DNA from: a virus
Virus record (IMG/VR): IMGVR_UViG_3300028573_000240
Coordinates: 1 to 22,901 of that record
Strand: one strand, 5' to 3'
DNA: 22,901 nucleotides
Shown: positions 6,819 to 22,901 of the stretch, piece by piece
How the letters are laid out: every line of letters starts with the position of its first letter
Numbering within the stretch: position 1 is the stretch's first letter
The notes under the pieces: model-generated
The model's database searches: none
What the model was told of the DNA's origin: nothing
What the model saw: only the letters and a program-made list of their open reading frames with translations
Program-made: the position numbers and the translations under genes

Positions 6819-6838
6819 AACGTTGTTTACACAAAGTG

Positions 6839-6854: not shown

Positions 6855-6862
6855 GATTTACT

Positions 6863-7471
6863 TTAAAACGAATAATTGCGTGTGCTCTTGCGCGTCTTGC
6901 ACTGCCATCCACAGTTTGACGATGAATTGAAGCAAGGTTCAAGTCGTCCTGTCGATTTCTTCAAGACAATTCCTTCGTCTTCGTCGCTCAACGAATTCCA
7001 CACATCAGCAAATCTTTTGTTAAAGTTGTTTGCAACTGACACAAATTCGTTCACCCGTGTTTGATCACCCTCGTCTTTTCCACTAAACATCGAATGTAGC
7101 ATCGCCTGTCGCTCTGCAAACGTAGTCCCAACGAGTTGTGTACCATCTAATACGATGGCATCAAAAATATAAATTTGATTTTTGGTGTTTTTTGTCTTGT
7201 TGTGCACAAGTTCTGCAGCAAATACGTTATACTTCAAATTTGAAGATTGAAATGGTCTCAAGTGATTTGACTGCGGTGTCCACTGCTTGTGATAATCATT
7301 GTGCCTTGTCATGAAAGTGACGTCAAGGCCACGCGCGAATATTACGGTGCAAGTACCATTCTTCTTCACCTGCGCGAGATAGCCTTGTTTTTCATAGAAG
7401 CCCAACAAGTTTTTAGGAACTTGTGCAGTTGGGCGGGGAGGATAAACATAAGTGAATTTATCATAAATCAT
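6863..7471 (-). CDS. Minimal ligase/capping-type nucleotidyltransferase (DNA or RNA ligase-like)
   Basis: 202 residues with all core motifs of the covalent nucleotidyltransferase superfamily in order: motif I KKNG with K36 as the likely adenylated lysine, an Arg in FMTRHND (R56), motif III VFAAEL (E87), motif IIIa IYIFDAIVLDG (D104), motif IV DEGIVLKK (E166, K171), and motif V WQCKTRK (K192/K195). It ends right after motif V, so the OB-fold or other C-terminal domain found in many ligases is missing. It should join or repair nicked DNA or RNA using ATP; which one cannot be told from sequence. Its ATG shares one base with the stop of the upstream gene (TAATG), so the two form an operon. Confidence 0.8.
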   Translation of the reverse strand: MIYDKFTYVYPPRPTAQVPKNLLGFYEKQGYLAQVKKNGTCTVIFARGLDVTFMTRHNDYHKQWTPQSNHLRPFQSSNLKYNVFAAELVHNKTKNTKNQIYIFDAIVLDGTQLVGTTFAERQAMLHSMFSGKDEGDQTRVNEFVSVANNFNKRFADVWNSLSDEDEGIVLKKSTGRLEPCFNSSSNCGWQCKTRKSTRNYSF

Positions 7472-8160
7472 TACGCAACCTTCACAGTCTCTTCTGTTTC
7501 AGAATTTTCTTCAACACTCTCACAAGATGCCAACACTGATTTTAGTGTAGTGACTATGTCAAAACTGTCACACTTGGGTTTCACAGCCATGACTGTTATC
7601 ATCCGAATTACTTGTTCATCAATTTCACCCGCAAACGCCTTTGCGATCGTCTCGTCACTAACAACTGTTTTGCTTCGCTCGTCTTGAACTACGAAGAATT
7701 CTGAAGTGTCAACGATGTCTTTGAGTGCTTTTTCCATCGCTGCTTCAACCTTTTCCATCAAAACTTCATCGCTCGCATATTTTGGGTTAATTGCAAATAA
7801 TTTTTGGGTTTCAACAAGAGTTTCAACGGGAACGTTTTTTGAAGTGAGATAAGCAACTTCTTCTGCACTCAACTTTGAGGCAGTGCTTCGCTTTCGCATT
7901 TCCATCGAGGCGCTCGTGTCACCATCGATACCACGAAAGCTGTCAACCTTTTTGTGAGTCACTTTTGCATCGTCAATGAACTTTGTGAACGCCGCTTCTT
8001 TTACGCTCATCTCGACGTTTGCTTTCATCGCGGTCAAAGTCTTGATGAGCGCGTCGAGCTTTGCAAGCTCGCTCAGCTGCGCAATCTCAACTTCTTCTTT
8101 CTTAGAAGCTTTCTTTGAGGGTTTTTCTTCGAGAGACTTTGCATTTTTGATCATTGCCAT
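7471..8160 (-). CDS. Helical, Lys/Glu-rich hypothetical phage protein
   Basis: 229 residues, mostly predicted helix by composition. The N-terminus is charged (MAMIKNAKSLEEKPSKKASK, then KEEVEIAQLSELAKLDALIK), and a region near the middle (DSFRGIDGDTSASMEMRKRS) looks like a conserved loop. I recognise no family. The start at 8160 is preferred to an in-frame ATG eight codons earlier because a promoter-like element (GTGTAA-17-TATATT) ends 6 nt before it and covers the longer start. It is the first gene of a two-gene operon with the ligase-like enzyme, so a role as nucleic-acid-binding partner is possible, by context only. Confidence 0.65.
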   Translation of the reverse strand: MAMIKNAKSLEEKPSKKASKKEEVEIAQLSELAKLDALIKTLTAMKANVEMSVKEAAFTKFIDDAKVTHKKVDSFRGIDGDTSASMEMRKRSTASKLSAEEVAYLTSKNVPVETLVETQKLFAINPKYASDEVLMEKVEAAMEKALKDIVDTSEFFVVQDERSKTVVSDETIAKAFAGEIDEQVIRMITVMAVKPKCDSFDIVTTLKSVLASCESVEENSETEETVKVA

Positions 8161-8166
8161 AACATC

Positions 8167-8195
8167 AATATACAACAATTTCACGTTATTTACAC
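8167..8195 (-). promoter_or_regulatory. Strong GTGTAA/TANANT promoter-like element, minus strand
   Basis: On the minus strand GTGTAA (8195-8190), 17 nt, TATATT (8172-8167), then 6 nt to the ATG at 8160. It is an independent copy in the opposite orientation, back-to-back with the plus-strand copy at 8218-8246. A leaderless transcript is predicted. Confidence 0.6.
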
Positions 8196-8217
8196 TTTTT
8201 CAAAAAATTTATTAAAT

Positions 8218-8246
8218 GTGTAAGTTTTCACAATTTGTGGTAAATT
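8218..8246 (+). promoter_or_regulatory. Strong GTGTAA/TANANT promoter-like element
   Basis: GTGTAA (8218-8223), 17 nt, TAAATT (8241-8246) preceded by TGG, then 6 nt to the ATG at 8253 of a 45-codon gene. Together with the minus-strand copy it forms a divergent promoter pair in a 92-nt intergenic space. Confidence 0.6.
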
Positions 8247-8252
8247 TAAACT

Positions 8253-8390
8253 ATGGAAAGTGAACAAATTCCGAGTTGGCTCGATGACATGTTCTTTGAT
8301 GCAAAATATGAGCATCCCGTCGAAGAGCATGAACAATTCACAGCGCACAATGTAACGCATTACGCCGATAGATTTATCTATCGAATATGA
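8253..8390 (+). CDS. Small acidic hypothetical protein (45 aa)
   Basis: A 45-codon ORF, starting MESEQIPSWLDDMFFDAKYE and ending with YADRFIYRI. Its ATG lies 6 nt after a strong promoter-like element, and its stop overlaps the next ATG (ATGA), so it is well framed at both ends. It is rich in acidic and aromatic residues, with no transmembrane segment and no recognised motif. It probably leads the transcript of the methyltransferase and glycosyltransferase that follow. Confidence 0.55.
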   Translation: MESEQIPSWLDDMFFDAKYEHPVEEHEQFTAHNVTHYADRFIYRI

Positions 8391-9310
8391 ACTTATCAGA
8401 CAAGCACAACAGTACTGAAATATTTCTGGAATACGCTCCCGTTTTTGCAGAAGTCTTAGAGAAGCCACTGTCGTGGGTCTACGAGTGGACGTCGTTCGAC
8501 GGGAATAAAATAACGAACGATTGGAAGTGTGGAAATTTTCTCCTTGAACGTTGGAATTCATCGTCAAAGGACGAAAAAGCAGAAGCAGAGCTATATTCTG
8601 ATCCACTGTTCACGCTCGGTTGTTTCAACACTTATATTTACTGGTCGCGTGCATACGTGCAACGCTTCGAGAATTTGTTCGAGACTGCACAAAAACTGTC
8701 TAACAACGTGTTCAATGACGTCGAGACAGTCGTCGATTTCGGTGCTGGCATCGGCTTGTCGACTTTGCACATCGCTCACTTGTTCAAGAAGCTTGGGCTA
8801 AAAGCAAAGGTAGTCTACCAAAACTGTGTGTCTGCCACCCTACAAGCGAAGCTTGCTTCTCATTTCTTTGAAAGTGAAGACATTGAAGTGTGCTCACGTG
8901 ACGAAATTCCTCCTGCTGACGTGTACTTCATCAGCGAGGTCATGGAGCACATGCGAAAGCCAGTACAGTTCGTCCAGGAACTACTGTCGAAGAACGATCC
9001 CAAGGTCGTCATGCACGCGTCTTCGTTCACGCAACCCAACTTTTGCGGACACTTTACAGAGTACAACGTGGCTCGACTTGGTGAGCAGGATAATATCGTC
9101 AAGGGCACGCAAGTTCAGCGGCGCGTCAATAGGTGCTTCTACGAAAACAAAAACTACATCAACGTTGAGCACAAGGCATTGTGGAACCACAGGCCACTGA
9201 CGTTGTTTAAGCGTGACTTGTTAGAGGTGCCTCAGGAACACAGACTGAACACTGTGAGCTGGGATGCTCGTTGGTGTCCTGAGTGGGTGAAAGAAAAACT
9301 CTTTGCATGA
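8387..9310 (+). CDS. Class I SAM-dependent methyltransferase
   Basis: 307 residues. The SAM-binding loop is VDFGAGIGLST (116-126), in a Rossmann-type context (VETVVDFGAGIGLSTLHIAH); the later ISEVMEHMRKPVQFVQELL segment matches the post-IV region of methyltransferases (E-V-hydrophobic-E-H). About 110 residues precede the catalytic domain and about 80 follow, including RPLTLFKRDLL. The substrate is unknown; it precedes a GT-B glycosyltransferase by 18 nt, so a glycan substrate is the best guess. Its ATG overlaps the stop of the 45-aa gene. Confidence 0.75.
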   Translation: MNLSDKHNSTEIFLEYAPVFAEVLEKPLSWVYEWTSFDGNKITNDWKCGNFLLERWNSSSKDEKAEAELYSDPLFTLGCFNTYIYWSRAYVQRFENLFETAQKLSNNVFNDVETVVDFGAGIGLSTLHIAHLFKKLGLKAKVVYQNCVSATLQAKLASHFFESEDIEVCSRDEIPPADVYFISEVMEHMRKPVQFVQELLSKNDPKVVMHASSFTQPNFCGHFTEYNVARLGEQDNIVKGTQVQRRVNRCFYENKNYINVEHKALWNHRPLTLFKRDLLEVPQEHRLNTVSWDARWCPEWVKEKLFA

Positions 9311-9316
9311 GTGTAT

Positions 9317-9322
9317 TATATT
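9317..9322 (+). promoter_or_regulatory. TATATT box 6 nt before a start codon
   Basis: GTGTATTATATT precedes the ATG at 9329 with 6 nt between the TATATT and the ATG. It strongly resembles the 13481-13498 region (GTGTATTATGAT, then an ATGAAATTATA start). A GTGTAA box at the expected distance is not visible, so only half of the element is supported. Confidence 0.3.
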
Positions 9323-9328
9323 AGTCTC

Positions 9329-10240
9329 ATGAAATTATATGTAAATCGTCGGCCCTATCATGGACCCTACGGTGGTGGCGCGAAGTATGTAAATGCGCTT
9401 TACGAACGTCTTGGTGATAAGATCGTTGATTGCATTGACGACGCAGACACCGTGCTGATCGCAGGCATGGGTAGTGACAGCGGCTTGCCATCAGCAACAC
9501 AAATTATAAACTACGCGAACTCGCCTCATGGTCGTCTCAAGAAGTTAAAAATAATCACCCGTGTCAATGACTGTGACGCGCGTAAGAACACGAACAACGT
9601 CGACGGTGAGATAGCTTTTGTTGTGCAGAACAGTGCCCACGTCGTGTACGTCTCTGAATGGATGTGCAGCTACTTTGCCAATCACAAGTTTGTTCACCTG
9701 AGACACCCGAGTACACACGTGATAATCAATGGGTGTGACAAAGGGATTTTCAAGGATCACAACAACAAATTGTCTCGAGTGTCAGACAAGACTTATATCG
9801 TCGCGCACTCGTGGTCAGACAACCCGTTGAAAGGCGAGGACGTGTTTGTGTGGCTCGACGAGTTTGTCGGGAAGCATGATGACTTTGAGTTCACGTTCGT
9901 CGGTAGGACAAAAGCAGAGTTAAAAAATAGCGTTCACGTCGAGCCTTTGTGTGGTGAGCCGCTTGGACGTGAATTATCAAAACACGATGTCTATGTTTTT
10001 GCAAGCCGTCGAGACCCGGGACCTAACACACTTCTGGAAAGCATCAGTTGTGGGTTACCATCGTACACATTGTCAGACGGTGGTGGTGCAGTTGAGTTCG
10101 CGGGAGACGAAAAACACCTGTACGACAATGTGAAGCAGCTCGAGAAAATTTTGTTGAGAAAAAAGTACGCGCAGAACGATTATCAAATACAAGATTGGGA
10201 CGAATGTATAAATTCTTATATAGAAGTGCTAACATTATGA
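9329..10240 (+). CDS. GT-B fold glycosyltransferase (GT4-like)
   Basis: 303 residues. The N-terminus MKLYVNRRPYHGPYGGGAKY carries the Gly-rich acceptor-side loop of GT4-type enzymes. NGCD (134-137) is the usual end of the first domain; AHSWSDNPLKGEDVFVWL starts the second, with FTFVGR following. The donor-site signature is DPGPNTLLESISCGLP, with E237 in the E-x7-E-like position and G242-L-P. It is expected to be a retaining, cytoplasmic enzyme using a nucleotide sugar. I chose ATG 9329 rather than a GTG at 9311 because MKLYV is a typical start and a TATATT box lies 6 nt before it. The stop overlaps the next ATG (ATGA). Confidence 0.85.
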   Translation: MKLYVNRRPYHGPYGGGAKYVNALYERLGDKIVDCIDDADTVLIAGMGSDSGLPSATQIINYANSPHGRLKKLKIITRVNDCDARKNTNNVDGEIAFVVQNSAHVVYVSEWMCSYFANHKFVHLRHPSTHVIINGCDKGIFKDHNNKLSRVSDKTYIVAHSWSDNPLKGEDVFVWLDEFVGKHDDFEFTFVGRTKAELKNSVHVEPLCGEPLGRELSKHDVYVFASRRDPGPNTLLESISCGLPSYTLSDGGGAVEFAGDEKHLYDNVKQLEKILLRKKYAQNDYQIQDWDECINSYIEVLTL

Positions 10241-10605
10241 CTTTTGTAAAAATATTTGAAAACGTTCTCTCGGTGAAATTGTCGGAGCTTTATAACAAAA
10301 ATGTCGACGTTGAGTACCTGCACGAAGTTAGAGACGTAATAGCAAACGTGTTTATGGAGTGTTTGCGTGACAGCGTGTACGCAACATCGATTTCTGTAGC
10401 AGGCGCGCAGTGGGTCGTGAACGAGGTATTCAAGAACGTTCAGCTGACGCCGGACACCAAGATCGTTGACTTGATCGTGACAAACGACGTTGAGCTCGAT
10501 CAGATTAGCGTAAGCGACGTGGTGTCATTGTCCGAAATGTTTGATGGAACGCCTCTTTGCGAGAAGTTATTGGCTGAACATCAGCGAAGACTATTGGAGA
10601 ATTAA
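10237..10605 (+). CDS. Hypothetical helical protein, possible paralog of 11152-11523
   Basis: 122 residues from the ATG overlapping the glycosyltransferase stop (ATGA); an upstream frame from 10195 was not used because it would lie inside that gene. It is almost entirely helical by composition. The N-terminus (MTFVKIFENVLSVKLSELYN) and C-terminus (SLSEMFDGTPLCEKLL) resemble those of the protein at 11152-11523 in pattern and position, suggesting an old duplication. No known domain. Confidence 0.6.
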   Translation: MTFVKIFENVLSVKLSELYNKNVDVEYLHEVRDVIANVFMECLRDSVYATSISVAGAQWVVNEVFKNVQLTPDTKIVDLIVTNDVELDQISVSDVVSLSEMFDGTPLCEKLLAEHQRRLLEN

Positions 10606-10607
10606 CA

Positions 10608-11165
10608 ATGCCTCTTCACACGACAGGCACAGAAAATCAGCTTGAAAATCTGTATAAGGACTACGTCTACTTTCGTGATATCGATCTTCCGCAGAATGCA
10701 GAACACTCACGTGCGCTCGCACTACAGCTTTGTGAGAAAAATAAAACGACAATTCCTCAATGGGCATTACCGCTTGCAAAGAAAATATCTCTCCTGGCGA
10801 CAATGTTGATGATGGGCTGCGTCAGTCACTTTGACGTGTCACCCACCGCAAACCCACAAGCTGCAAATGCTGTTGTGACGCAGGAACATTGCAACACTCT
10901 CGACACTTTGCACATTGTTGGAACAGCCGCAGGCCTTGCCGCGGCGGGAGTTGGTACGGGTCTATCGGGCTTAGCTGTTGCCGAAACTAACGTGAACAAA
11001 AATATCATGATCAGTGCGTTGATAACGACGGGCGTTGGCACGGGCCTGACTGCGCTAGGAATTAGTGCGGGTAATTCATGGGTTTCTGAGTGCCAAAAAC
11101 AAGCCGTGCAAAATGCTGCGGTAAAGCTCACATTGAAAAGGAAACAGGAAAATGACGCAAAGTAA
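10608..11165 (+). CDS. Membrane protein with an internal lipobox-like site and Gly-rich hydrophobic hairpin
   Basis: 185 residues, preceded by GGAG. Residues 1-57 are hydrophilic. At 58-71, KKISLLATMLMMGC resembles a lipoprotein signal with Cys71, but it lies far inside the protein and no alternative start codon fits just upstream. Two Gly/Ala-rich hydrophobic stretches follow (about 103-126, TAAGLAAAGVGTGL; about 134-158, ITTGVGTGLTALG) with NVNKN between them, a membrane hairpin. The C-terminus is basic. Close to the endolysin, it could be holin- or spanin-like, but the evidence is positional only. It overlaps the next gene by 14 nt. Confidence 0.55.
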   Translation: MPLHTTGTENQLENLYKDYVYFRDIDLPQNAEHSRALALQLCEKNKTTIPQWALPLAKKISLLATMLMMGCVSHFDVSPTANPQAANAVVTQEHCNTLDTLHIVGTAAGLAAAGVGTGLSGLAVAETNVNKNIMISALITTGVGTGLTALGISAGNSWVSECQKQAVQNAAVKLTLKRKQENDAK

Positions 11166-11523
11166 AAAGAAGACGTTCAACGATGTGTTTAGCGTTTTGT
11201 TGGCAGAACGTTTGTCAATGTTTTTGGACGGCAGAAGCCTAAACAAAGCAACATGTAACGAAATTTATGTTGTGATTTTTAATTGTCTCACTGACATATT
11301 ACAACAGTCAAACGTGAAGCTTGATAATGAAAGCGCTAATTACGTCGCTCAGTGTTATTATGGGTCGTTGAAAATTAACGGTAAAGAAGAACTCGATCCA
11401 AACATCTTTGAAAAGAAAGCAAAACTTGAAAACATTCCGTCTAAGGAACTTGCGCTCATGGCGATGTTGTTGAGTGGAACCAACTTTGGTGACGACATAA
11501 TCAGGTTTGTGAAGAGGCGATAA
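11152..11523 (+). CDS. Hypothetical helical protein, possible paralog of 10237-10605
   Basis: 123 residues. The ATG lies 14 nt inside the end of the previous gene and has a good upstream AGGAAACAGGAAA ribosome-binding tract. The protein is helical, with KTFNDVFSVLLAERLSMFL near the start and ELALMAMLLSGTNFGDDII near the end, which mirror the two ends of the 10237-10605 product (KIFENVLSVKLSELY; SLSEMFDGTPLCEKLL). No known domain and no signal peptide. Its stop shares a base with the endolysin start (TAATG). Confidence 0.6.
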   Translation: MTQSKKKTFNDVFSVLLAERLSMFLDGRSLNKATCNEIYVVIFNCLTDILQQSNVKLDNESANYVAQCYYGSLKINGKEELDPNIFEKKAKLENIPSKELALMAMLLSGTNFGDDIIRFVKRR

Positions 11524-12128
11524 TGTACAAATCTGTCATAGACATTTTTCCTTCATTTTCGACAAAATTAGAGGGAAGAATTTATGTGATGTATGCTGAC
11601 GTGAAACAGCTTATAACGACAAGCGTGGGTGTACTCATCGATCCCGTAGAACGCGCATTGAAGTTACCGTGGATACATCGAGACACGAAGTTACCTGCGA
11701 CAAAAGACGAAATTGTAATTGAATGGAATAAAATAAAAGCAGACAAAAGTCTTGCTCATCTCGGACACAAAGCCGCAGAAAAAGTTGCATCGTTGATGTT
11801 AACTGACGTGAGCCTCGACAACGTTGTGATGCAGAGGTTACAGGCGAATGAAAAATACATCTCAAACGCGTTCGTGAATTGGAACAAATTTCCTGCAAAC
11901 GTGCAGCTGATGATACACTCGATGGCATGGGCGCTCGGTGCAGGATTTGAGCACACGTGGAAAGATTTCACTCACTGTTGCGAGAGCTTCAACTGGGTGG
12001 GTGCGTCTGAACAGTGCCACATCAACGAGACGAACAACGCAGGCGTGATACCTCGTAATGTTGCGAACAAAAAGTTGTTGCTCGCGATCAAGCCAGGTGA
12101 TGATCCTTCACAAATTCATGGAATTTAA
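11523..12128 (+). CDS. Endolysin, T4-lysozyme-like muramidase
   Basis: 201 residues. The N-terminal catalytic pattern matches T4 lysozyme spacing exactly: E17 in KLEGRIYVMYAD, D26 nine residues later, T32 six further on in QLITTSVG (in T4: Glu11, Asp20, Thr26). The region LIDPVERALKLPW, the later MIHSMAWALGAGFEH segment, and RNVANKKLL near the C-terminus are typical of the phage muramidase group I associate with such starts. It would cut peptidoglycan between MurNAc and GlcNAc at lysis. There is no signal peptide, so a holin or similar must release it; the membrane protein at 10608 is the only nearby candidate. It starts by TAATG overlap with the previous gene. Confidence 0.75.
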   Translation: MYKSVIDIFPSFSTKLEGRIYVMYADVKQLITTSVGVLIDPVERALKLPWIHRDTKLPATKDEIVIEWNKIKADKSLAHLGHKAAEKVASLMLTDVSLDNVVMQRLQANEKYISNAFVNWNKFPANVQLMIHSMAWALGAGFEHTWKDFTHCCESFNWVGASEQCHINETNNAGVIPRNVANKKLLLAIKPGDDPSQIHGI

Positions 12129-13085
12129 ATGCGAATTCAGCTGAATAATCTTGATCTAAGTAGCTCGAGCGGCCCAAATTGCTTCGGAACTTGTCTTGCA
12201 AGAGCTTTTTTTGAGATGGGACACGAAGTCGTCTTTGATAACAACGCAGACGTGAGCTTGGTGTTCATTGAACAAACGGGTGAAAAGCTGTGTGATAAAG
12301 TTGTGCATCGTCTTGATGGCATATGGTCGTCGCAAAAAGACTTTGAACAAAAAAACAGGAGCATAAAACAAACATACGCTCTCGCAGACGCAGTCGTCTT
12401 TCAGAGCGAGTTCGACAAGAGAATAGTCACGAAGCTGTTCGGTGAGCCAAAGCAAGGTGTTGTCATTCACAATGGCACAGACGCAACGCCAATACGTGAG
12501 CACAAGTTCACAGGATTGGAAAAGCTTAGACAAGAGTTTGACGTAGTGTACTCTTGTTCAGCAATGTGGCATCCACAAAAGCGATTACGAGAGAACGTTG
12601 AGCTGTTCAAACACTTGCGAAGCTTATCACCTGACAAAAAGAGTTGTTTGATAGTGCTTGGTATTGTTGACAATCAACAGAACTATGACTTGTTACGCGC
12701 TGACACAGGAATATTTTATGCAGGTTATCAATCACTTGACGTGTGTCTTGAAGTATATGCAATGTCACATTGGTTTATTGCGTTAAATTTCGCTGATCAT
12801 TGTCCAAACACTGTAATTCATGCTTTATCACAAGAGACGCCCTGCATTATCGCTAGTAGCGGTGGCACGAAAGAGATTGTAAGAGACTTTGGAATAGTTT
12901 TACAAGAAGAAAATGAGTTTGAGCCTGGATATTTCGACTGGGATTCACCACCCACGTTAAACGTGAAGCAAATAAAACAATTACCTAACGTCAAATCTTT
13001 GGGTTCACATGTCGATGTGTCGATAAAGAACGTTGCAAAAAAATACGTTGAATTGTTTGAGAGTGTAATTCGTTCGTCAATGTGA
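12129..13085 (+). CDS. GT-B fold glycosyltransferase (GT4-like), atypical donor site
   Basis: 318 residues, starting directly after the endolysin stop. Features: the N-terminal loop SSSSGPNCFG, VVHRLDGIW (58-66), ADAVVFQSEFDKR (86-98) and VVIHNGTD (111-118), all standard in GT4-type first domains. The second domain has SAMWHPQKR and DHCPNTVIHALSQETPCI. Where most relatives have a Glu two residues before the leucine of the E-A-L-x-x-G-x-P motif, this one has His231 (IHAL), and the usual Gly is Glu, so the donor site is atypical. It could use a different sugar or be impaired. A promoter-like element for the next gene lies in its last codons. Confidence 0.8.
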   Translation: MRIQLNNLDLSSSSGPNCFGTCLARAFFEMGHEVVFDNNADVSLVFIEQTGEKLCDKVVHRLDGIWSSQKDFEQKNRSIKQTYALADAVVFQSEFDKRIVTKLFGEPKQGVVIHNGTDATPIREHKFTGLEKLRQEFDVVYSCSAMWHPQKRLRENVELFKHLRSLSPDKKSCLIVLGIVDNQQNYDLLRADTGIFYAGYQSLDVCLEVYAMSHWFIALNFADHCPNTVIHALSQETPCIIASSGGTKEIVRDFGIVLQEENEFEPGYFDWDSPPTLNVKQIKQLPNVKSLGSHVDVSIKNVAKKYVELFESVIRSSM

Positions 13086-13091
13086 TAATTT
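13063..13091 (+). promoter_or_regulatory. GTGTAA/TANANT promoter-like element inside the end of a glycosyltransferase gene
   Basis: GTGTAA (13063-13068), 17 nt, TAATTT (13086-13091) preceded by TGA. The ATG at 13107 follows 15 nt later, giving a short leader of about 8-9 nt. The first box lies within the coding end of the glycosyltransferase gene. Confidence 0.45.
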
Positions 13092-13106
13092 GTTTATTGA
13101 CAACAC

Positions 13107-13283
13107 ATGGATCTCACTACAATTGACGACGTCCTGAAGCAGAAAAAACAGGAGCTCAAAAACGTAAAGCGACTTATTTTGAACAGTCACAATTACGTTG
13201 CGAAACTGCTTCACAAGAAGTTCGTTGAAAACAACGGGTGTAAAGTTTGTCATGGGGCAGGAAGATTGTATCAAGTCCAATAG
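13107..13283 (+). CDS. Small protein with a CxxCxGxG zinc-type motif
   Basis: 58 residues: a Lys-rich helical N-terminus (DVLKQKKQELKNVKRLIL) and a C-terminal CKVCHGAGRLYQ. CxxCxGxG is half of a DnaJ-type zinc module, which normally needs a second Cys pair; none is present in this frame. The gene overlaps the next ORF by 37 nt in the -1 frame, so a frameshift or sequencing error joining the two is possible. It has a plausible promoter-like element upstream. Function unknown. Confidence 0.5.
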   Translation: MDLTTIDDVLKQKKQELKNVKRLILNSHNYVAKLLHKKFVENNGCKVCHGAGRLYQVQ

Positions 13284-13471
13284 ACATTTGTGCATACTTC
13301 GTGTACCCGAAAAGGTTAGAAGATAGCAAAGGCACGTTTGACATGGTGACGAGGTGCAAAAATGCAGGCGACATAGAAATTGTAGACATGTTTTGTAGTA
13401 CGTTACCGAGCAAACTTCGTGAGATTATTCGAAAAATTAATGATAAGACAAATGTGGTGTGTAATGATTGA
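13247..13471 (+). CDS. Small hypothetical protein, possibly the continuation of 13107-13283
   Basis: The frame opens at a TTG (13247) and gives up to 74 residues; an internal ATG at 13343 would leave 42. No ribosome-binding site is seen at the TTG. It reads PIDICAYFVYPKRLED, then MVTRCKNAGDIEIVDMFC and a helical end SKLREIIRKIND. The weak start and the overlap with the upstream small gene suggest it is the C-terminal part of a longer protein in the -1 frame. The next promoter-like element lies over its 3' end. Confidence 0.35.
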   Translation: MSWGRKIVSSPIDICAYFVYPKRLEDSKGTFDMVTRCKNAGDIEIVDMFCSTLPSKLREIIRKINDKTNVVCND

Positions 13472-13488
13472 CGCATGTGTATTATGAT
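13459..13488 (+). promoter_or_regulatory. GTGTAA/TANANT promoter-like element, 18-nt spacer
   Basis: GTGTAA (13459-13464), 18 nt, TATGAT (13483-13488), then 9 nt to the ATG at 13498. No Shine-Dalgarno is present. The GTGTATTATGAT stretch closely resembles the one before the 9329 start. Confidence 0.5.
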
Positions 13489-13497
13489 AAAAGTACT

Positions 13498-13710
13498 ATG
13501 AAATTATACGAAATTCCTCAGAATTCAATGATAAATTGTAAATCAAGCGATGGATCATCGTATGTATGGTTCAGACATTGTGATGGTTACTATTCGTTTT
13601 GTAAAACTGAGTTTGGCAACGTATGCCATCTTTGTGCAACTCAAGAATTGAAGTTCGTTGAAGAGTGTGAAAGTGCATTTGGTAAATATAACGTGTACGA
13701 TTTAGCATAG
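13498..13710 (+). CDS. Small hypothetical phage protein with Cys/aromatic core
   Basis: 70 residues starting MKLYEIPQNS, with FRHCDGYYSFCKTEFGNVCH in the middle: strand-rich, with aromatic and acidic residues, like small phage proteins with a F.H.DG.YSYC..E.GNV.H core. I know no function for that group. I use the ATG at 13498, preceded by a promoter-like element, rather than one at 13468, which lies inside that element. Cysteines at CDGYYSFC and CHLC could bind metal. Confidence 0.55.
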   Translation: MKLYEIPQNSMINCKSSDGSSYVWFRHCDGYYSFCKTEFGNVCHLCATQELKFVEECESAFGKYNVYDLA

Positions 13711-13719
13711 AAAGTAAAC

Positions 13720-14658
13720 ATGAAGAAAAAAATATACACACTTCCTGCGAACGAAGCGTGGATTTGCGACACACTTGCAAGGGAATTCTTTGAAGGAAAT
13801 CAAGATATTTGTGTTCCAACGCCTATGCTTGCAAATGTGATATGGGTATTAAGCGATTGGTGTTGGACAGGCTTGGCTCGAGCAGGACTTCTTGATAATA
13901 AACGCGTCTTGACAAGTGTACATCACATCGTGCCGACAAAGTTTCAAAAGTCCGAAGCATTAGATTTCATAGCACGTGATAAATTCACACATGCGTATCA
14001 TGTTTATAATAGACACACGCTTGAGCAGGTGAAAGAAATTCAGGAAAATCTCAAGCTATCTAAGAAAGACGTACATTTACTACCTTATTGGACAAATTCT
14101 AAAATTTGGTTTCCACTTGAAAATAAACAAGAATTACGTTCAAAGCACAATCTTCCACGAAATGCATTTATAATTTCGTCGTTTCAACGAGACACTGAAG
14201 GTTCTTCGATTGCTACAGGAGAGTTTTTACCGAAGCTTGAAAAAGGTCCTGATTTATTTTGTGACTTTGTGATTGCATATGCTTCAACGCATGAAAATGT
14301 GCACGTGCTATTGTCAGGATGGCGCCGACAATACGTGATGAAACGACTTGATTTTGCAAACATTTCTTACACGTACATTGAACTTCCTTTACAGGAGACA
14401 ATAAACGAATTATATAATTGTACAGATTTATATGTCGTGGCGTCACGTTATGAAGGCGCGCCTCAGGCGCTATTGGAAAGTTCACTGTGTCAAGTTCCCA
14501 CGATTTCTACACCCGTAGGTATAGCTGAAGACGTGTTGCCATCAAATGCGATATCAACAAACTTGTTACAGTGTATTCCCACAATTCCCGTAGTTCCAAA
14601 CAATTGGAAAATTCCAATCGGATTTGAAAAGTACCGCACGTTATTACAGTCAATTTAG
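13720..14658 (+). CDS. GT-B fold glycosyltransferase (GT4-like)
   Basis: 312 residues. The first domain contains VHHIVPTKF and ends with LLPYWTNSKIWFP (120-132), a variant of the usual linker. The second domain starts with IISSFQRDTEG (151-161) and has LLSGWRRQYV (197-206), then ELPLQETINELYNCTDLYVVAS and the donor-site motif RYEGAPQALLESSLCQVP (243-260) with E245 and E253 in the E-x7-E arrangement, followed by GIAE. It should be a retaining enzyme using a nucleotide sugar. It starts 9 nt after the previous gene with only a weak GAAAG as ribosome-binding site. Confidence 0.87.
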   Translation: MKKKIYTLPANEAWICDTLAREFFEGNQDICVPTPMLANVIWVLSDWCWTGLARAGLLDNKRVLTSVHHIVPTKFQKSEALDFIARDKFTHAYHVYNRHTLEQVKEIQENLKLSKKDVHLLPYWTNSKIWFPLENKQELRSKHNLPRNAFIISSFQRDTEGSSIATGEFLPKLEKGPDLFCDFVIAYASTHENVHVLLSGWRRQYVMKRLDFANISYTYIELPLQETINELYNCTDLYVVASRYEGAPQALLESSLCQVPTISTPVGIAEDVLPSNAISTNLLQCIPTIPVVPNNWKIPIGFEKYRTLLQSI

Positions 14659-14670
14659 AAAAAATATAAC

Positions 14671-15126
14671 ATGACACAATGTTTTTATGATTTTGGTGAT
14701 GGACATGGACTTGTTCCTGCGCATCGACACGTGAATAGGTCAAAAAATGTACTTGGCGGCTGGGTTGCAGACACTGCGCGCGTCGCGAAGACTGTGTTCG
14801 TTGGCAAAAATGCGTTGGTGTTTGACGAAGCAATCATTAATTATTATGTCATTGTCAATTGCGACGCAAAAGTATATGGTCAAGCGGTTCTTCAGGGACA
14901 CGTGTGGGTGTATAATTGCGGACAAGTTTTTGGATTTGCAAACTTAGACGACAACGTTAGAATAACGGGCAGCGCAGTTGTTAGCGGAGGCTTTCTTAGA
15001 AAGAACGCCGTTGTAGGAGGAAATGCCCAAATTGGTGGTGGTGCATTCATTGCAGAAAATGCAATCATACACGGTGTTGCAAACTTAACAGATGGACTTC
15101 ACATAAACGTTGAAATCACAAAATGA
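14671..15126 (+). CDS. Left-handed beta-helix (hexapeptide-repeat-like) protein
   Basis: 151 residues. From about residue 30 the protein is a run of short repeats in which small and beta-branched residues recur every six (VADTARVAKTVFVGKNALVF; later VRITGSAVVSGG, KNAVVGGNAQIGGGAFIAEN). This is the pattern of a left-handed parallel beta-helix, as in sugar O-acetyltransferases and related phage proteins. A catalytic His in the acetyltransferase position is not obvious, so it may be structural or regulatory. It is joined to the following glycosyltransferase-like gene by an ATGA overlap, so an O-acetyltransferase role in glycan synthesis is possible but unproven. Confidence 0.7.
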   Translation: MTQCFYDFGDGHGLVPAHRHVNRSKNVLGGWVADTARVAKTVFVGKNALVFDEAIINYYVIVNCDAKVYGQAVLQGHVWVYNCGQVFGFANLDDNVRITGSAVVSGGFLRKNAVVGGNAQIGGGAFIAENAIIHGVANLTDGLHINVEITK

Positions 15127-15926
15127 CAACTTGCCACGTCTCGTCACATCGTTTCAATTATCTCCTACCATCAATCCCACGAGATTGGTCAAGGCGACAA
15201 GAAATAGTTGCAAAGACGATGTTGTGGGACATGCCGACGTGTGAAGTTTGGTGGGAGTGTCATGACGGTGTAATGGACGATCAAGTCGAGAGCACTGAAA
15301 GGCTCGACTTGTGTTTGGCTGCACGAAACAGGAATAAAAAGTTCTTTTACGTGAAGCCAAATTTATCACCAACGTGTAGCAAACACTTTTATGAGAAAAT
15401 TGACGAAGTAAAAGGTGAATTATTGACGTGTTTTCCCTGGTCATACTATGATGCATATGCACACATCATAAACAATCGACATGTATTTCGAGAAAATCTA
15501 AACGGAAAACATCTTGTTGCATTTTTTGGTGGATACGCTTCGTGTTATGTTTACGATCGCAAAGCAGACGTGAACTCTGCGAAAATTACATATGGTGATA
15601 AGTTTGTTGAAATGAACGGATTGCGAACAAATAACTACGTTCAAGAATTAATGACGACATATTGCACGTTGCAACCACATGGTGTAGGGCTGCGTCACGG
15701 AACATATGAAGCGCTGTGTTTAGGAATTCCATCGCTCGTCCCACCGTCTTCGTACTGGAAGAAAGAAATACTTGATTGTTGCATTCAGTATTCACCCGGA
15801 AACGTACCAAATTATGTCGATTTAGTTTGCGATGATTACAAAATCAGAAGTGAATATTGTGTGTACACATGGGAAAAGTACATGACGTCAAGCGCAATTA
15901 TCAATTCGGTACTATCACATGTCTAA
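15123..15926 (+). CDS. Glycosyltransferase-like protein (GT-B, exostosin-like C-terminal half)
   Basis: 267 residues. The recognisable part is the C-terminal half: LVAFFGGYAS (131-140), then LQPHGVGLRHGTYEALCLGIPSL at 183-205, where G193, E196 and G201-x-P fit the donor-nucleotide site of GT-B/exostosin-like enzymes. The N-terminal half (EVWWECHDG, LAARNRNKKFFYVKPN) is less typical. It is shorter than most GT-B enzymes. It overlaps the beta-helix gene (ATGA) and the next gene by 8 nt. The assignment as a glycosyltransferase is tentative and leans on the neighbours. Confidence 0.5.
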   Translation: MTTCHVSSHRFNYLLPSIPRDWSRRQEIVAKTMLWDMPTCEVWWECHDGVMDDQVESTERLDLCLAARNRNKKFFYVKPNLSPTCSKHFYEKIDEVKGELLTCFPWSYYDAYAHIINNRHVFRENLNGKHLVAFFGGYASCYVYDRKADVNSAKITYGDKFVEMNGLRTNNYVQELMTTYCTLQPHGVGLRHGTYEALCLGIPSLVPPSSYWKKEILDCCIQYSPGNVPNYVDLVCDDYKIRSEYCVYTWEKYMTSSAIINSVLSHV

Positions 15927-16695
15927 AAATCTCGTCATATCGTGGTTGTCGTATCTAACGGAAGAAAATCGTGAGAGGCGACTTGATACTTGGGAAAAAT
16001 CATATCAATCGCTTAAAACGATAAATGATGCGCACATCATAGTCATTGATAATGCATTACCAACAAGATCATTAGTCAACACACAATATGAATATTTCAA
16101 TGCAAATAATAAGTGGTTCGATGTAGCTGCGCACTACGTTGCGTTACAACGTGCAAAATCGTTAGGTTGCAAATATTTTGCATACATGTACGATGATTTT
16201 GTCGTGTACGATGGAACGTTCGTTGCAGATGCAATATCGTACATGGATGAAAATTCGGACGTTAATTGTATTAGACTTCCCGAATATGATGTCAATAATG
16301 TTGAGCGTTACAACAGTTCAATAACGCAAAAATACATAAATCCCGAGTCTGTGTCACATGTCGGCGTAAGAAAACAAAATGTAGTTCACTACGACAAACA
16401 AATCATAGGAAACCACGTTTTTTATAAGTCAAACTTTCGTCCGATTTCGCGTCCAACAATGTGGCGAACGTCTGACTTTGAAAGATTGATTGGTTATCCA
16501 AATCCATGTCAAGTTATGCAACTTTTTGAAAAACACATGTACGATTGTGCAGACAAAGACATGACGTATGTTTCAGGATTTATTGACAAGGGAATTTGTC
16601 ACACGTTTCCACAAGAGACGAGCGCTCGAATAAAAGCAGGCAATAATTTTGGTACTGTTGATTTACATGCGCTACGCGATAAGTTAAATTTTTAA
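15919..16695 (+). CDS. GT-A-like glycosyltransferase
   Basis: 258 residues. The first strand LVISWLSYL and IIVIDNALPTRS resemble the nucleotide-binding start of GT-A enzymes, and YFAYMYDDFVVYDGT (86-100) carries the acidic pair D92-D93 at the place of the metal-binding DxD. Later segments (FRPISRPTMWRTSDFERLIG; GICHTFPQETSARI) match the acceptor-side half of such enzymes, with a late His. The family cannot be named with certainty. It starts by an 8-nt overlap and the next gene begins 1 nt after its stop. Confidence 0.6.
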   Translation: MSKNLVISWLSYLTEENRERRLDTWEKSYQSLKTINDAHIIVIDNALPTRSLVNTQYEYFNANNKWFDVAAHYVALQRAKSLGCKYFAYMYDDFVVYDGTFVADAISYMDENSDVNCIRLPEYDVNNVERYNSSITQKYINPESVSHVGVRKQNVVHYDKQIIGNHVFYKSNFRPISRPTMWRTSDFERLIGYPNPCQVMQLFEKHMYDCADKDMTYVSGFIDKGICHTFPQETSARIKAGNNFGTVDLHALRDKLNF

Positions 16696-16696
16696 C

Positions 16697-16960
16697 ATGC
16701 GCAAGAAATCATGCACATTGAAGAAAAAATCAGCAAAAAAAGAACACGTCAATCATCCTACGCACTATAATTCTCACCCGTCTGGCGTTGAGTGCATTGA
16801 CATAGTCGAACATATGAATTTCTGTTGCGGAAACGTATTTAAATATTTATGGAGAATGGGAATTAAGGACGAAACTCCTTCACTACGCGACGCAAAGAAG
16901 GCACAGTTTTACATGAACCGTGAAGTTGCACGGCTTGAAAAATTCGGGTATGAAGAGTGA
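16697..16960 (+). CDS. DUF3310 phage protein
   Basis: 87 residues. After a basic N-terminus (MRKKSCTLKKKSAKKEHV) comes the DUF3310 signature: HYNSHPSGVECIDIVEHM, then NVFKYLWRMGIKDETPSLRD and KKAQFYMNREVARLE. The family is very common in phage genomes, is helical and has a conserved YxxHP-ExID-KYxxR pattern; I know no settled biochemical role. It sits between a glycosyltransferase-like gene and the tail fibre, which tells little about its job. Confidence 0.8.
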   Translation: MRKKSCTLKKKSAKKEHVNHPTHYNSHPSGVECIDIVEHMNFCCGNVFKYLWRMGIKDETPSLRDAKKAQFYMNREVARLEKFGYEE

Positions 16961-16978
16961 CACGACGTTATTTATAAC

Positions 16979-18139
16979 ATGGGACGTACATTTTCACTTT
17001 CTGAACTCAATTACATAATTGACAACAGAATTAAAGGACTTGGTGCAACTGGGCTTCAAGCGTCTAATTCCACTGTTGTAAATGTATCAAATGCAGCGCC
17101 TCCTGAAATAGGACAAGTGTTGACTATTGTGTCACCTACAAAAGCAACGTGGCAAAATTCTTCTTCGGGCGCGCCGCTTGCTACAACTGTGCCAATAGAT
17201 GAGACGCCTGGCATTTCTGGTGCCGTTGGTAATGAAAATGCCGCGGCACATGCTGATCACGTTCACGCAATGCCACCATTTGGAACAGTGGCAGGTACAT
17301 TTTGTGAAGGAAATGACAATAGGCTTAATGCGTCAAGCGGTGGTATAATAATAATTGGACAAATTTCAAATATTCCATCAGCATCATCAGTTTCAGTTGG
17401 TACAGTGTACGTACCAACGGACTCTGGATACAAAATGATTTCTGACGGTTCTAATTGGTTGATTGACGTGCCATACGTTTCACAAGTTATAATAGGCACG
17501 GGAGATTTATCAGGTTGGACATACGAAAGCGGATTAATATCCTCTGTTCAAATCGTTTCACACACAACATATTCAACTTTTCATTGCGTGGCGTTAAATA
17601 CGTCTCCTGATTATGTCGATTTTTTGCCACCAATTTCATCATTTAATACGGGACCTGGTGGCGTGTGGACGATTACGGCATGTTTTCGTTATGTTGGCAA
17701 CGTAAACGGTTTTGCTGCGGCATATCAAGGAATTGCAATTGTATTACTTGATGATTTGGGGCATAGGTTTATGTGGGGACCGTTGTTAGAGGCTAACCCG
17801 TTGTATACATCAGCAAGTGCGTGTGGATTTACAAATCACACTAGAAATTATGTGACAATAGGTACGCTTGAATTATCAAACATCACACCTGCGCTTTTTA
17901 CCTGGTTTTTTAGAGTTCGATTTGATGGTACAAGTTATTATAAAGAATATTCATCTAACGGTGTTAATTGGGTGCTTTCATCGCATGGTGACGCGTCTAG
18001 TGGTCCACCCAACGTAGTATCGTATAATGGAATAAACACAATGACACCAACGCATTGGGGTGTTGGGTGTGAATTAATTCCAACTGTTCCTGCTGATTTT
18101 GATATTCTAATGCTACGACAAACTCCAACTAATGGATAA
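16979..18139 (+). CDS. Tail fibre / receptor-binding adhesin with lectin-like C-terminus
   Basis: 386 residues. The N-terminal ~60 residues (LSELNYIIDNRIKGLGATGL and a linker with PPEIGQVLTIVSPTKATWQ) are typical of fibre attachment and repeat regions. Residues 88-116 hold AAAHADHVHAMPPFGTVAGT and EGNDNRL, a signature shared by many phage fibre proteins. From about residue 170 the sequence is strand-rich and aromatic (DLSGWTYESGL, FRVRFDGTSYYKEYSSNG, WVLSSHGD), consistent with a concanavalin-like jelly-roll head that would bind a surface sugar. No chaperone or peptidase domain is seen. The stop overlaps the start of a GT-A enzyme (TAATG), a strong hint of a functional link. Confidence 0.75.
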   Translation: MGRTFSLSELNYIIDNRIKGLGATGLQASNSTVVNVSNAAPPEIGQVLTIVSPTKATWQNSSSGAPLATTVPIDETPGISGAVGNENAAAHADHVHAMPPFGTVAGTFCEGNDNRLNASSGGIIIIGQISNIPSASSVSVGTVYVPTDSGYKMISDGSNWLIDVPYVSQVIIGTGDLSGWTYESGLISSVQIVSHTTYSTFHCVALNTSPDYVDFLPPISSFNTGPGGVWTITACFRYVGNVNGFAAAYQGIAIVLLDDLGHRFMWGPLLEANPLYTSASACGFTNHTRNYVTIGTLELSNITPALFTWFFRVRFDGTSYYKEYSSNGVNWVLSSHGDASSGPPNVVSYNGINTMTPTHWGVGCELIPTVPADFDILMLRQTPTNG

Positions 18140-18882
18140 TGTTTATGTTTAAAGTTTTTGTCGGCACAATGTACTGTGGAGAAAATGAATTTGATTGTTC
18201 GCAACAATTCGTTGATGAGCAAAAGAATGTAATAATTTCAAAATACATTATAAAAAACAAACCAGAACATGAAGCGGCAAAAGAATTGTATTCAACGTGG
18301 AATATTGTCAAGTGTGAGTATGATTTTTTTGTGCAGGTCGACGCAGACACGATACTTGCGCACGATTATGTTTTTGATAATGCAACGCAACTGTTATATT
18401 CACATTTATCACCATTACGAGACAACACAAAGACGTTCACGTCACTACAAGCACCGTTATATGATTATTTGACGAATGATTACGTGATGGGACTAAATGT
18501 CTATTCAACGCAGGTTGAGTGGGACGTCAACGTTGACAAACTTTATACAGACAGGTGCACAAAAAATAATAAAACAATGCGTCCTGATAATTTCAAGGAA
18601 TTTCCAAAGTCTTTAGTCCCAGCAGGTTCTCATGCGACAAGGTTGTCAAACGTTCAGGCTTATCATTATGGCATACATCGTGGATTGAAACGACAATTTG
18701 ATAAAAGAGACAAAATTTTACGTGCGTTACAAAATTTACCTGTGTTCATATCGTCAATGCCACGCGTGTTTGCGTTACAAGGATTTGAAGATTGTGAAAA
18801 GTTTCGTGGAACGAATGAGTTTAATTACAATGACGATAAATTTTTGAGAGCGTTTGCAGAAGCAAAGGCAAAATTGATATGA
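18139..18882 (+). CDS. GT-A-like glycosyltransferase coupled to the tail fibre gene
   Basis: 247 residues. FKVFVGTMYCGENEF begins the fold; YDFFVQVDADTIL (61-73) contains the DxD motif D68-A-D70, the best single marker of a metal-dependent GT-A enzyme. The later SLVPAGSHATRLSNVQAYHY segment supplies the conserved His/Arg region near the acceptor site. It starts at the ATG sharing a base with the fibre stop, though an ATG six nt later is possible. Translational coupling suggests that the fibre, or another virion protein, could be its substrate. An 11-codon remnant-like ORF follows. Confidence 0.7.
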   Translation: MFMFKVFVGTMYCGENEFDCSQQFVDEQKNVIISKYIIKNKPEHEAAKELYSTWNIVKCEYDFFVQVDADTILAHDYVFDNATQLLYSHLSPLRDNTKTFTSLQAPLYDYLTNDYVMGLNVYSTQVEWDVNVDKLYTDRCTKNNKTMRPDNFKEFPKSLVPAGSHATRLSNVQAYHYGIHRGLKRQFDKRDKILRALQNLPVFISSMPRVFALQGFEDCEKFRGTNEFNYNDDKFLRAFAEAKAKLI

Positions 18883-20669: not shown

Positions 20670-21728
20670 TCAAGAGTTGTCTTTGCATCGACATTGCTCT
20701 TTGAGGACTTCAGATGGCCTCTTCGTCAAATCTCTTTTCTTTGACGAACTGATCACTTCAGGTGCCACAGCAATGTTAAACGCTGCGTTGACGTCTGCGT
20801 GATCAACGTGTTCACAGTGTGTGCACTTGAACACTTTTCCGGTGCGGTTTTCTTTGTCGACGTGGCCGCATCGTGAGCACTTCTGTGAAGTCCATTTAGG
20901 ATCAATCACTTGAAGCTCAACGCCCCACTTTTTGGCCTTGTATTCAAGCATGGTTTTGAACATGAAGAATGGCCAAGAGTTCAGGACGAAGTTGCTTTGT
21001 TTTTTAAATTTAACTGTGCATCGCTTTCGTATGCCTTTGAGATTTTCAATTTTTATTCCTGTGTTGTTTTCCTTTGCTTCTTTGACGATGCTTGTCGTGA
21101 GTTTGTGCAAGATGTCAACTGTTTTTTGATGCTCACGGTTTGCAACTTTCTTAAGTTCTTTGAACTTTCTTTGACGTTGAAGTCTTTTTCTAATTGCTCG
21201 ATATTTCTTTTTGACGTGAGGAACTTGTTTTCCGAGTTTCTTGACTTTTCCTGTTGATGGGTTTGCAACGACAACTGAGTGAGAAGTTGAGTTCAAGTCA
21301 ATGCCAACGAAATTTTGTGACTTCGTCACTTCAACGTCTGGAATTGTGACAGTCACGTAAGCCCAAGTCTTGTCGAGTTCAACTTGATTTATCTTTGTGA
21401 AATCATTGCGAAACCAGAAATTAAATACACTTTTAAGACAAGGGAGTCGAATCAATTTTTCGTCAATATTAAATTTAACGCTCTGTCCAGGAATAATTAA
21501 TTTTACTTTTTTGTGAATTTTTTTGATTGTTTTGCTTCGTCCATATTTTCTGATAATTTGACATGAAATACATGAATGAAGTCCAATGTGTTTAACATTT
21601 TTTGTTGAAACATATCCATGTTCAAAAGCAAACTGTGCAACTTTAACTGCCTTCTCAAAAAGAGAATGTTCAAGTTGCAACTTATGTTTGACTTTAAACG
21701 TTAGGATCACTTGTTTAAGATTAATCAA
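20670..21728 (-). CDS. tnpB: TnpB-type RNA-guided nuclease / OrfB of IS200/IS605 family
   Basis: 352 residues. Three RuvC-type acidic residues are present in order: D144 in VGIDLNS, E228 in IKIENLKG, D312 in DHADVNAAFN. A zinc ribbon (C284, C287, C302, C305; CSRCGHV and CTHCEHV) lies between the last two, as in intact TnpB. Members studied so far cut DNA guided by an RNA from the element's 3' end and help the transposon persist. No tnpA is in the window, so the element is solo or is mobilised in trans. The first codon is TTG (21728), sitting inside an AAGATT/AATCTT hairpin; a GTG at 21710 (MILTFKV...) is an equally good or better start. Length is a little short of typical (about 370-420). Confidence 0.88.
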   Translation of the reverse strand: MINLKQVILTFKVKHKLQLEHSLFEKAVKVAQFAFEHGYVSTKNVKHIGLHSCISCQIIRKYGRSKTIKKIHKKVKLIIPGQSVKFNIDEKLIRLPCLKSVFNFWFRNDFTKINQVELDKTWAYVTVTIPDVEVTKSQNFVGIDLNSTSHSVVVANPSTGKVKKLGKQVPHVKKKYRAIRKRLQRQRKFKELKKVANREHQKTVDILHKLTTSIVKEAKENNTGIKIENLKGIRKRCTVKFKKQSNFVLNSWPFFMFKTMLEYKAKKWGVELQVIDPKWTSQKCSRCGHVDKENRTGKVFKCTHCEHVDHADVNAAFNIAVAPEVISSSKKRDLTKRPSEVLKEQCRCKDNS

Positions 21729-22017: not shown

Positions 22018-22206
22018 TCAATGCGTTGCAAGTCCCATTGATTTGAAGTAACTTCTCATCTTTTTCTTTGTCTCATCATTGACGAGTAAGCTCTCACCAT
22101 CAAGAGATTTGTCATCTACGATTTCATTTGAATAGTCTTCTTCGGGTTGTGAACCTGCAAGTCCCTCACGAATTATTTGCCGAAGTCGTTTGATCGTTAT
22201 TTTCAT
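22018..22206 (-). CDS. Small phage protein with an RQIIRE-type N-terminus
   Basis: 62 residues. It begins MKITIKRLRQIIREGL, an N-terminal segment (basic, then LRxIIRE) that recurs at the head of many small proteins in marine tailed phages as I recall them. The rest is acidic in the middle (PEEDYSNEIVDDKSLDGE) and basic near the end (DETKKKMRSYFKSMG). No function is known to me. No clear ribosome-binding site was found. First gene of a minus-strand group with the lipoprotein, divergent from the zinc-finger gene to the right. Confidence 0.6.
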   Translation of the reverse strand: MKITIKRLRQIIREGLAGSQPEEDYSNEIVDDKSLDGESLLVNDETKKKMRSYFKSMGLATH

Positions 22207-22246: not shown

Positions 22247-22901
22247 ATGATTGTTCGATGTGAATATTGTGACATTGAAATTGAAGCAAAAACACGTAAA
22301 AAACGTTTTTGTTCAACTAAGTGTTATAAAGCATCAAGGTATATAAAACGTACGTTGATATGTCCTTTTTGTAAAATTGAGTTTATTCCAAGTGGTGGTC
22401 ATCAAACATATTGTTCAGGCGTGTGTCGTGAAAATGATCGTAAACAAAATTATATTCCACGAACAATTCCACAACGTAATTGTGAAATTTGTTCTGAATT
22501 ATATACACCAAAAGTGGGTAATCAGAAGTTTTGTTCACAAGAATGCTTTAATATACATCGAGAAAAATATTGTGAAGAATTAGACGAAAAAAGAAAAATA
22601 GTACGACAATGTCGATATTGTGGAAATGATTTTAGACGTATTGACGAAGGAAGTGGATTTTGTACGCGTTCATGCGCCGCAAAATGGAATATTGAACACG
22701 GATTATTTGAAGTTTGGCGAACACGAAAAAATGATTTAAAACCAAGAAGAATACAACCTTGTGATGAGTGTGGAACCGCACTTGAAAGTTTAGAAACGTA
22801 TAGACCTGGTAAGTTACGATTTTGTAATCGTATTTGTAAAGGAAAATATCATTCAAAACATTTTTCAGGTGAAAATTCACCTACATTTGGGCGAAAATTA
22901 C
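22247..22901 (+). CDS. Multi-zinc-finger protein with NUMOD3 motif, homing-endonuclease-like (runs off right edge)
   Basis: The ATG at 22247 opens a frame still open at the window end (218 codons). It contains five zinc-ribbon repeats. The first four have the same spacing, C-x2-C-x13-C-x3-C: C5/C8/C22/C26, C39/C42/C56/C60, C79/C82/C96/C100 and C122/C125/C139/C143. The fifth has x17: C172/C175/C193/C197. The last residues, GENSPTFGRKL, match the NUMOD3 core (GxN(N/S)P..GRK), a DNA-binding module of HNH and GIY-YIG homing endonucleases, so a nuclease domain probably follows beyond the edge. It resembles in plan the protein at 2172-2957. It is very AT-rich, and no standard ribosome-binding site was seen. 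Confidence 0.72.
   Translation, partial: MIVRCEYCDIEIEAKTRKKRFCSTKCYKASRYIKRTLICPFCKIEFIPSGGHQTYCSGVCRENDRKQNYIPRTIPQRNCEICSELYTPKVGNQKFCSQECFNIHREKYCEELDEKRKIVRQCRYCGNDFRRIDEGSGFCTRSCAAKWNIEHGLFEVWRTRKNDLKPRRIQPCDECGTALESLETYRPGKLRFCNRICKGKYHSKHFSGENSPTFGRKL

What the first reader, a model, noticed from the sequence alone, without database searches (positions are those of the whole stretch)
22247..22901. Evenly spaced zinc-finger array fused to NUMOD3, cut by the window edge
Four repeats have an identical C-x2-C-x13-C-x3-C pattern and a fifth follows. The repeat regularity suggests internal duplication and a modular DNA-recognition array ahead of a homing-endonuclease module. I do not know a described family with this exact plan.
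Basis: partly seen in the sequence, partly recalled or inferred. Interest (0 to 1): 0.6.

Follow-up and report, generated by a model that had tools for sequence, protein, structure and literature searches.

The report
Zinc-finger array of phage homing-type nuclease
The end of this phage contig carries the first part of a gene for a DNA-cutting enzyme that probably finds its target with five zinc fingers; the contig stops before the cutting domain, and many phages carry enzymes built the same way, so this is a new example of a known kind.

Summary
ORF 22247-22901(+), 218 codons and still open, has four exact C-x2-C-x13-C-x3-C units, a fifth with x17, then SGENSPTFGRKL, a NUMOD3-type start, at the last bases. 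The window is the whole virus record (22,901 b), so the rest cannot be read. The fingers are not evenly spaced (starts 34, 40, 43 and 50 residues apart) and show no recent duplication. AlphaFold models each as a hairpin plus helix (treble-clef-like). The plan is widespread in phages: a DNA pattern for three consecutive fingers found about 50 genuine phage arrays of mostly 3-6 fingers, many ending in HNH or PD-(D/E)XK/Vsr-type nucleases. Mycobacterium phage Gaia gp136 has five x13 fingers plus HNH. Three viral contigs have five fingers, G-K-N-[SH]-P, a sixth finger and a nuclease; the one modelled (L036) matches homing endonuclease I-Bth0305I (Z 14.6). The same contig holds a smaller complete sibling (2172-2957). 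Best reading: N-terminal DNA-recognition part of a free-standing phage homing-type endonuclease. It is a new member of a known kind; which nuclease follows is unknown.

The parts
22247..22901 (+). ORF, 218 codons, open at the record end: N-terminal finger array plus start of a NUMOD3-like motif
   Evidence: GC3 0.119 against mean 0.404, sd 0.076 for the other genes (z -3.7)
22259..22324 (+). finger 1, aa 5-26, C-x2-C-x13-C-x3-C (CEYCDIEIEAKTRKKRFCSTKC)
   Evidence: modelled helix 24-30, low pLDDT around 18-20
22361..22426 (+). finger 2, aa 39-60, C-x2-C-x13-C-x3-C
   Evidence: helix 58-67
22481..22546 (+). finger 3, aa 79-100, C-x2-C-x13-C-x3-C
   Evidence: helix 98-116, pLDDT about 90 or more
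22610..22675 (+). finger 4, aa 122-143, C-x2-C-x13-C-x3-C
   Evidence: helix 141-150
22760..22837 (+). finger 5, aa 172-197, C-x2-C-x17-C-x3-C
   Evidence: helix 195-205; 47% identity over 51 aa with the finger plus NUMOD3 of L032
22865..22900 (+). NUMOD3-like motif, first 12 residues SGENSPTFGRKL, cut by the record end
   Evidence: same spacing from the last Cys as in 20 viral contigs found by pattern; relatives pass PF07460
2172..2957 (+). sibling gene in the same contig: two finger-like Cys clusters, NPMKRPEIR (NUMOD-like), PD-(D/E)XK nuclease (GTWE, LPDFF, VDVKG)
   Evidence: Pfam DUF7487 E 2.3e-7; PHROG endonucleases; relatives in huge phages

Best explanation
The ORF is the N-terminal, DNA-recognising part of a free-standing phage homing-type endonuclease. 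Five treble-clef-like zinc fingers are strung on linkers and followed by a NUMOD3 linker/DNA-contact motif and, beyond the contig end, most likely a C-terminal nuclease of the PD-(D/E)XK/Vsr (EDxHD) or HNH type. The fingers would lie along a long target site and position the nuclease, which cuts a DNA copy lacking the gene so that repair copies the gene in. Shown: finger pattern, motif, open frame, low GC3, plan of the relatives. Inferred: zinc binding, DNA binding, the unseen nuclease, homing.
For: Finger pattern and motif. Treble-clef-like model, helix starting at Cys3/Cys4 of every finger, mean pLDDT 81. Best viral structure matches include many phage HNH nucleases, Gaia among them. PHROG 15471 'HNH endonuclease' E 2.6e-11. 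Relatives: five x13 fingers plus HNH in Gaia gp136 (Pfam HNH 5e-9); five fingers plus GKN[SH]P plus a sixth finger plus nuclease in L036/L077/L078, with the L036 nuclease matching I-Bth0305I 3r3p at Z 14.6, rmsd 3.0 over 97 residues, and Vsr 1cw0 at Z 13.8; four fingers plus NUMOD3 (9.9e-17) plus TnsA-like nuclease in L030. The finger-NUMOD3 pattern occurs in 20 viral contigs and 1 cellular contig. Of 14 families by my reading, 9 continue into an intact nuclease (6 PD-(D/E)XK or Vsr type, 3 HNH), 2 have GIY-YIG on the N side, 3 have none or a broken one. GC3 is far below the rest of the contig.
Against: The nuclease itself is not in the sequence. Only 12 residues of NUMOD3 are visible and Pfam cannot score them. 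No close full-length homologue was found (best about 25-34% identity; none by the search for related loci). Some phage finger arrays have no recognised nuclease (L057 family, L041, L046, L090). No empty-site comparison could be made, so mobility is not shown.
Confidence: 0.8

Rival explanations
1. A zinc-finger DNA-binding regulator or other protein without a nuclease; the SGENSPTFG stretch is a linker.
For: Some phage arrays carry no recognised nuclease (L057 family with four x13 fingers, L041, L046, L090); L023 has one finger plus NUMOD3 and then a stop.
Against: The nuclease-less arrays I read lack the GENxP motif; 9 of 14 finger-NUMOD3 families continue into a nuclease and 2 have one on the N side.
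Confidence: 0.1
2. A decayed homing endonuclease: the array remains but the nuclease is frameshifted or deleted beyond the edge.
For: L025 (shifted HNH-like reading downstream) and L021 (intein with a cut-off finger plus NUMOD3) show such decay.
Against: All 20 Cys of the five fingers are intact and the frame is open for 218 codons.
Confidence: 0.08
3. A GIY-YIG type enzyme whose nuclease lies on the N-terminal side, with the array as its C-terminal part.
For: L033 (Pfam GIY-YIG 9.7e-5) has GIY-YIG, NUMOD3, finger, NUMOD3 in this order; L017 (cut at its 5' end) has the same order of the later modules.
Against: Here the ORF begins with finger 1 at residue 5, and the 40 bases between it and the divergent gene at 22018-22206 hold no GIY-YIG.
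Confidence: 0.02

Closest known systems
Mycobacterium phage Gaia gp136 (HNH endonuclease)
   Same: five C-x2-C-x13-C-x3-C fingers in a row; aligns to residues 5-208 at 25% identity
   Different: no NUMOD3-like motif seen between array and HNH
Vsr-like (EDxHD) homing endonucleases, I-Bth0305I family, here as L036/L077/L078
   Same: five fingers, then G-K-N-[SH]-P, then (sixth finger and) nuclease; L036 nuclease model matches 3r3p at Z 14.6
   Different: the nuclease of the window ORF is not visible; array identity only about 26%
NUMOD3-containing PD-(D/E)XK protein of a 194-kb uncultured virus (L030)
   Same: four fingers then NUMOD3 GENAPFYGRTHTEEN; nuclease at the C-terminus
   Different: two more fingers and further NUMOD3 copies before a TnsA-like nuclease
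T5orf172 homing endonucleases of ICP1 and other phages with repeated CapR-type zinc fingers
   Same: 'beads on a string' repeats of zinc fingers as DNA-recognition part (PMC10448857)
   Different: finger type CxxC...CxC and a different nuclease
zf-FCS / MYM-type and YacG-like treble-clef zinc fingers
   Same: CxxC...FCSxxC signature; weak Pfam matches in relatives; YacG 4tma best solved match but only Z 4.0
   Different: no match above a curated cut-off for the window ORF

Membership tests
Phage homing-type endonuclease with modular zinc-finger/NUMOD DNA-binding part | repeated small DNA-binding modules on one side of the protein | tested here: met
   five fingers plus NUMOD3-like start
Phage homing-type endonuclease with modular zinc-finger/NUMOD DNA-binding part | nuclease domain (HNH, GIY-YIG, PD-(D/E)XK or EDxHD) | tested here: inconclusive
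   the record ends before it; present in most relatives with the same plan
Phage homing-type endonuclease with modular zinc-finger/NUMOD DNA-binding part | mobility: gene present or absent at the same site in related phages | not tested
   the right flank is missing; no overlapping contig found for the end
Phage homing-type endonuclease with modular zinc-finger/NUMOD DNA-binding part | site-specific DNA cleavage | not testable with these tools
   needs protein and DNA assay
NUMOD3 (PF07460) | match to the Pfam model | tested here: inconclusive
   no match in the window, but only about 12 of 37 positions are present; relatives with the same residues match at E down to 9.9e-17
EDxHD / I-Bth0305I family | Vsr-like catalytic domain | tested here: inconclusive
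   not visible in the window ORF; found in sibling L036
Treble-clef zinc finger (FCS type) | CxxC knuckle, beta hairpin, helix carrying CxxxC | tested here: met
   secondary structure and Cys positions in the model, though solved-structure matches are weak
Treble-clef zinc finger (FCS type) | zinc bound by four Cys | not testable with these tools
   inferred from the Cys pattern

The most novel reading that the evidence does not exclude
The array could lead into a nuclease or effector type not yet seen behind such fingers, or the fingers could read DNA by a modular one-finger-per-few-bases code like that of C2H2 arrays, giving a natural programmable phage nuclease scaffold.
Probability: 0.05. 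Interest if true: 0.6.

Novelty: new member of a known kind. Interest (0 to 1): 0.22.

Why it matters
The single gene adds little. The survey behind it suggests that arrays of mostly three to six small FCS-type zinc fingers are a common, swappable targeting module in phage endonucleases, put in front of HNH and Vsr/PD-(D/E)XK domains. Pfam mostly misses these fingers, and several such genes are annotated only as hypothetical. If the fingers read DNA one by one, the group would be a natural source of compact targeting modules.

Tried and rejected
The search for related loci with the ORF in viral and genome contigs found no relative, and an alignment of arrays was too diverse to search with; DNA patterns worked instead. 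A 28-mer near the window's end found no overlapping viral contig. Recent internal duplication was rejected: no long DNA repeats, 5-8 of 24 shared residues. Intron-borne gene: no Rfam match in the window, not testable at the edge. The weak Pfam hits LysW, RPAP2 and NinG lie below cut-off and reflect the shared Cys pattern. The long CTCF alignments in Foldseek have TM-scores near 0.1 and rmsd above 15, so they reflect only a string of fingers. About 12 of the 62 hits are low-complexity or chance frames and were discarded. Families absent are not excluded, since only chains ranked by Foldseek were compared.

Full report
What is there. The window is the complete virus record of 22,901 bases. At its right end an ORF on the + strand starts at ATG 22247 (an in-frame ATG at 22220 is also possible) and runs open to the last base: 218 codons. 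Four units fit C-x2-C-x13-C-x3-C exactly, at residues 5, 39, 79 and 122. A fifth, at residue 172, has x17. The last 12 residues are SGENSPTFGRKL (for positions). In 20,000 shuffles of the residues no more than two units appeared. The units are not evenly spaced (34, 40, 43, 50 residues apart), share only 5 to 8 of 24 residues including the four Cys, and show no repeated DNA beyond two 14-mers. Any duplication is therefore old.

Structure. AlphaFold with 38 relatives gives mean pLDDT 81 and, for every finger, a short hairpin followed by a helix that begins at the third or fourth Cys. That is the treble-clef arrangement. Matches to solved structures are weak (YacG Z 4.0), as expected for 25-residue domains. 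Among predicted viral proteins the best matches include many phage HNH nucleases, with phage Gaia gp136 at rank 5.

Relatives. PHROG 15471 (HNH endonuclease) matches at E 2.6e-11. tblastn in phage records at a loose limit led to complete proteins: Gaia gp136 with five x13 fingers plus HNH; LinStu gp100 with a finger array plus a PD-(D/E)XK-like motif; Halorubrum tailed virus 28 gp29 with three fingers, each followed by a GE-N/D/H-type motif, plus HNH; HATV-3 gp14 with two fingers, FSGQNSHFW and HNH; a 636-kb phage with two fingers plus HNH (L002). A DNA pattern for finger plus NUMOD3 at the spacing seen here found 20 viral contigs but only one cellular contig. By my reading (Pfam) these are 14 families: nine lead into an intact C-terminal nuclease (six PD-(D/E)XK or Vsr type, three HNH), two have GIY-YIG on the N side (L033 by Pfam; L017 by order of modules), and three have none or a broken one (L021, L023, L025).

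A second pattern for three consecutive fingers (its middle finger was required to be x13, so counts of x13 in that set are biased) found 62 stretches, about 50 of them genuine. Most hold 3-6 fingers and many end in HNH or PD-(D/E)XK/Vsr-type nucleases. Three of them (L036, L077, L078) have five fingers, G-K-N-[SH]-P, a sixth finger and a C-terminal domain. L036 was modelled (whole-model pLDDT only 68.5, nuclease part mostly 57-93 by ten-residue block), and its C-terminal domain matches the I-Bth0305I homing endonuclease at Z 14.6, rmsd 3.0 over 97 residues, 30% identity, and Vsr at Z 13.8. The same nuclease (32-35% identity in the alignment) stands behind one finger plus NUMOD3, preceded by other repeats (Myb-like by a weak Pfam match in L032), in L015, L019, L024, L029 and L032. 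This is direct evidence that the recognition modules differ while the nuclease is shared. Some arrays carry no recognised nuclease (L057 family, L041, L046, L090).

Context. The gene has GC 0.324 and GC3 0.119 against a GC3 mean of 0.404 (sd 0.076) for the other 33 genes, z -3.7, which suggests recent arrival. The same contig carries a second, complete gene of the general kind at 2172-2957: two Cys clusters, an NPMKRPEIR motif and a PD-(D/E)XK nuclease with GTWE, LPDFF and VDVKG, and a TnpB-type gene at 20670-21728. So the contig holds several mobile-type nuclease genes.

How it most likely works. Zinc-bound fingers and the NUMOD3 segment lie along a long DNA target and place a C-terminal nuclease on it; cutting of gene-free copies lets repair copy the gene in. 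The finger array, motif, open frame and composition are shown; zinc and DNA binding, the nuclease beyond the edge and homing are inferred. I put a nuclease downstream at about 0.8, with PD-(D/E)XK/Vsr somewhat more likely than HNH.

What is known. Phage homing endonucleases with loosely tethered DNA-binding modules (NUMODs, zinc fingers) and six catalytic families including EDxHD are reviewed in PMC3943268. Repeated zinc fingers as 'beads on a string', with recombination between them, are described for T5orf172 homing endonucleases in PMC10448857. I found no paper that describes the FCS-type finger arrays as a group, but the search was limited to open-licence full texts.

Verdict. A real feature, a new member of a known kind; interest low to moderate.

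Noticed in passing
window 20670-21728 (-): TnpB-type RNA-guided nuclease gene (NCBIfam guided_TnpB, E 5.9e-46) with RuvC-like motifs GIDLNS, IENLKG and ADVNAAFN and the CxxC...CxxC ribbon; no TnpA seen in the window.
   Followed up: partly
window 2172-2957 (+): Complete sibling nuclease: two Cys clusters, NUMOD-like NPMKRPEIR and PD-(D/E)XK; Pfam knows it only as DUF7487.
   Followed up: partly
window 6003-18882: Long run of what look like glycosyltransferase and sugar-handling genes (read from translations only), with UDP-glucose dehydrogenase at 1219-2175 (Pfam).
   Followed up: no
window 679-1185 (+): Pyrimidine dimer DNA glycosylase family gene (PF03013, E 5.3e-10).
   Followed up: no
L057, L060, L067, L072, L091, L094: A conserved protein of about 385 aa with four x13 fingers and a further one, and no recognised nuclease, in at least six viral contigs; function unknown.
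   Followed up: no
L021:5629-6504 (-): Intein in a clamp-loader-like ATPase that holds a finger plus NUMOD3 followed by a stop, with the C-terminal extein in another frame.
   Followed up: partly
L039:4988-5944 (+): Six-finger array at the C-terminal end of a 1,049-codon open frame, with no nuclease recognised.
   Followed up: no
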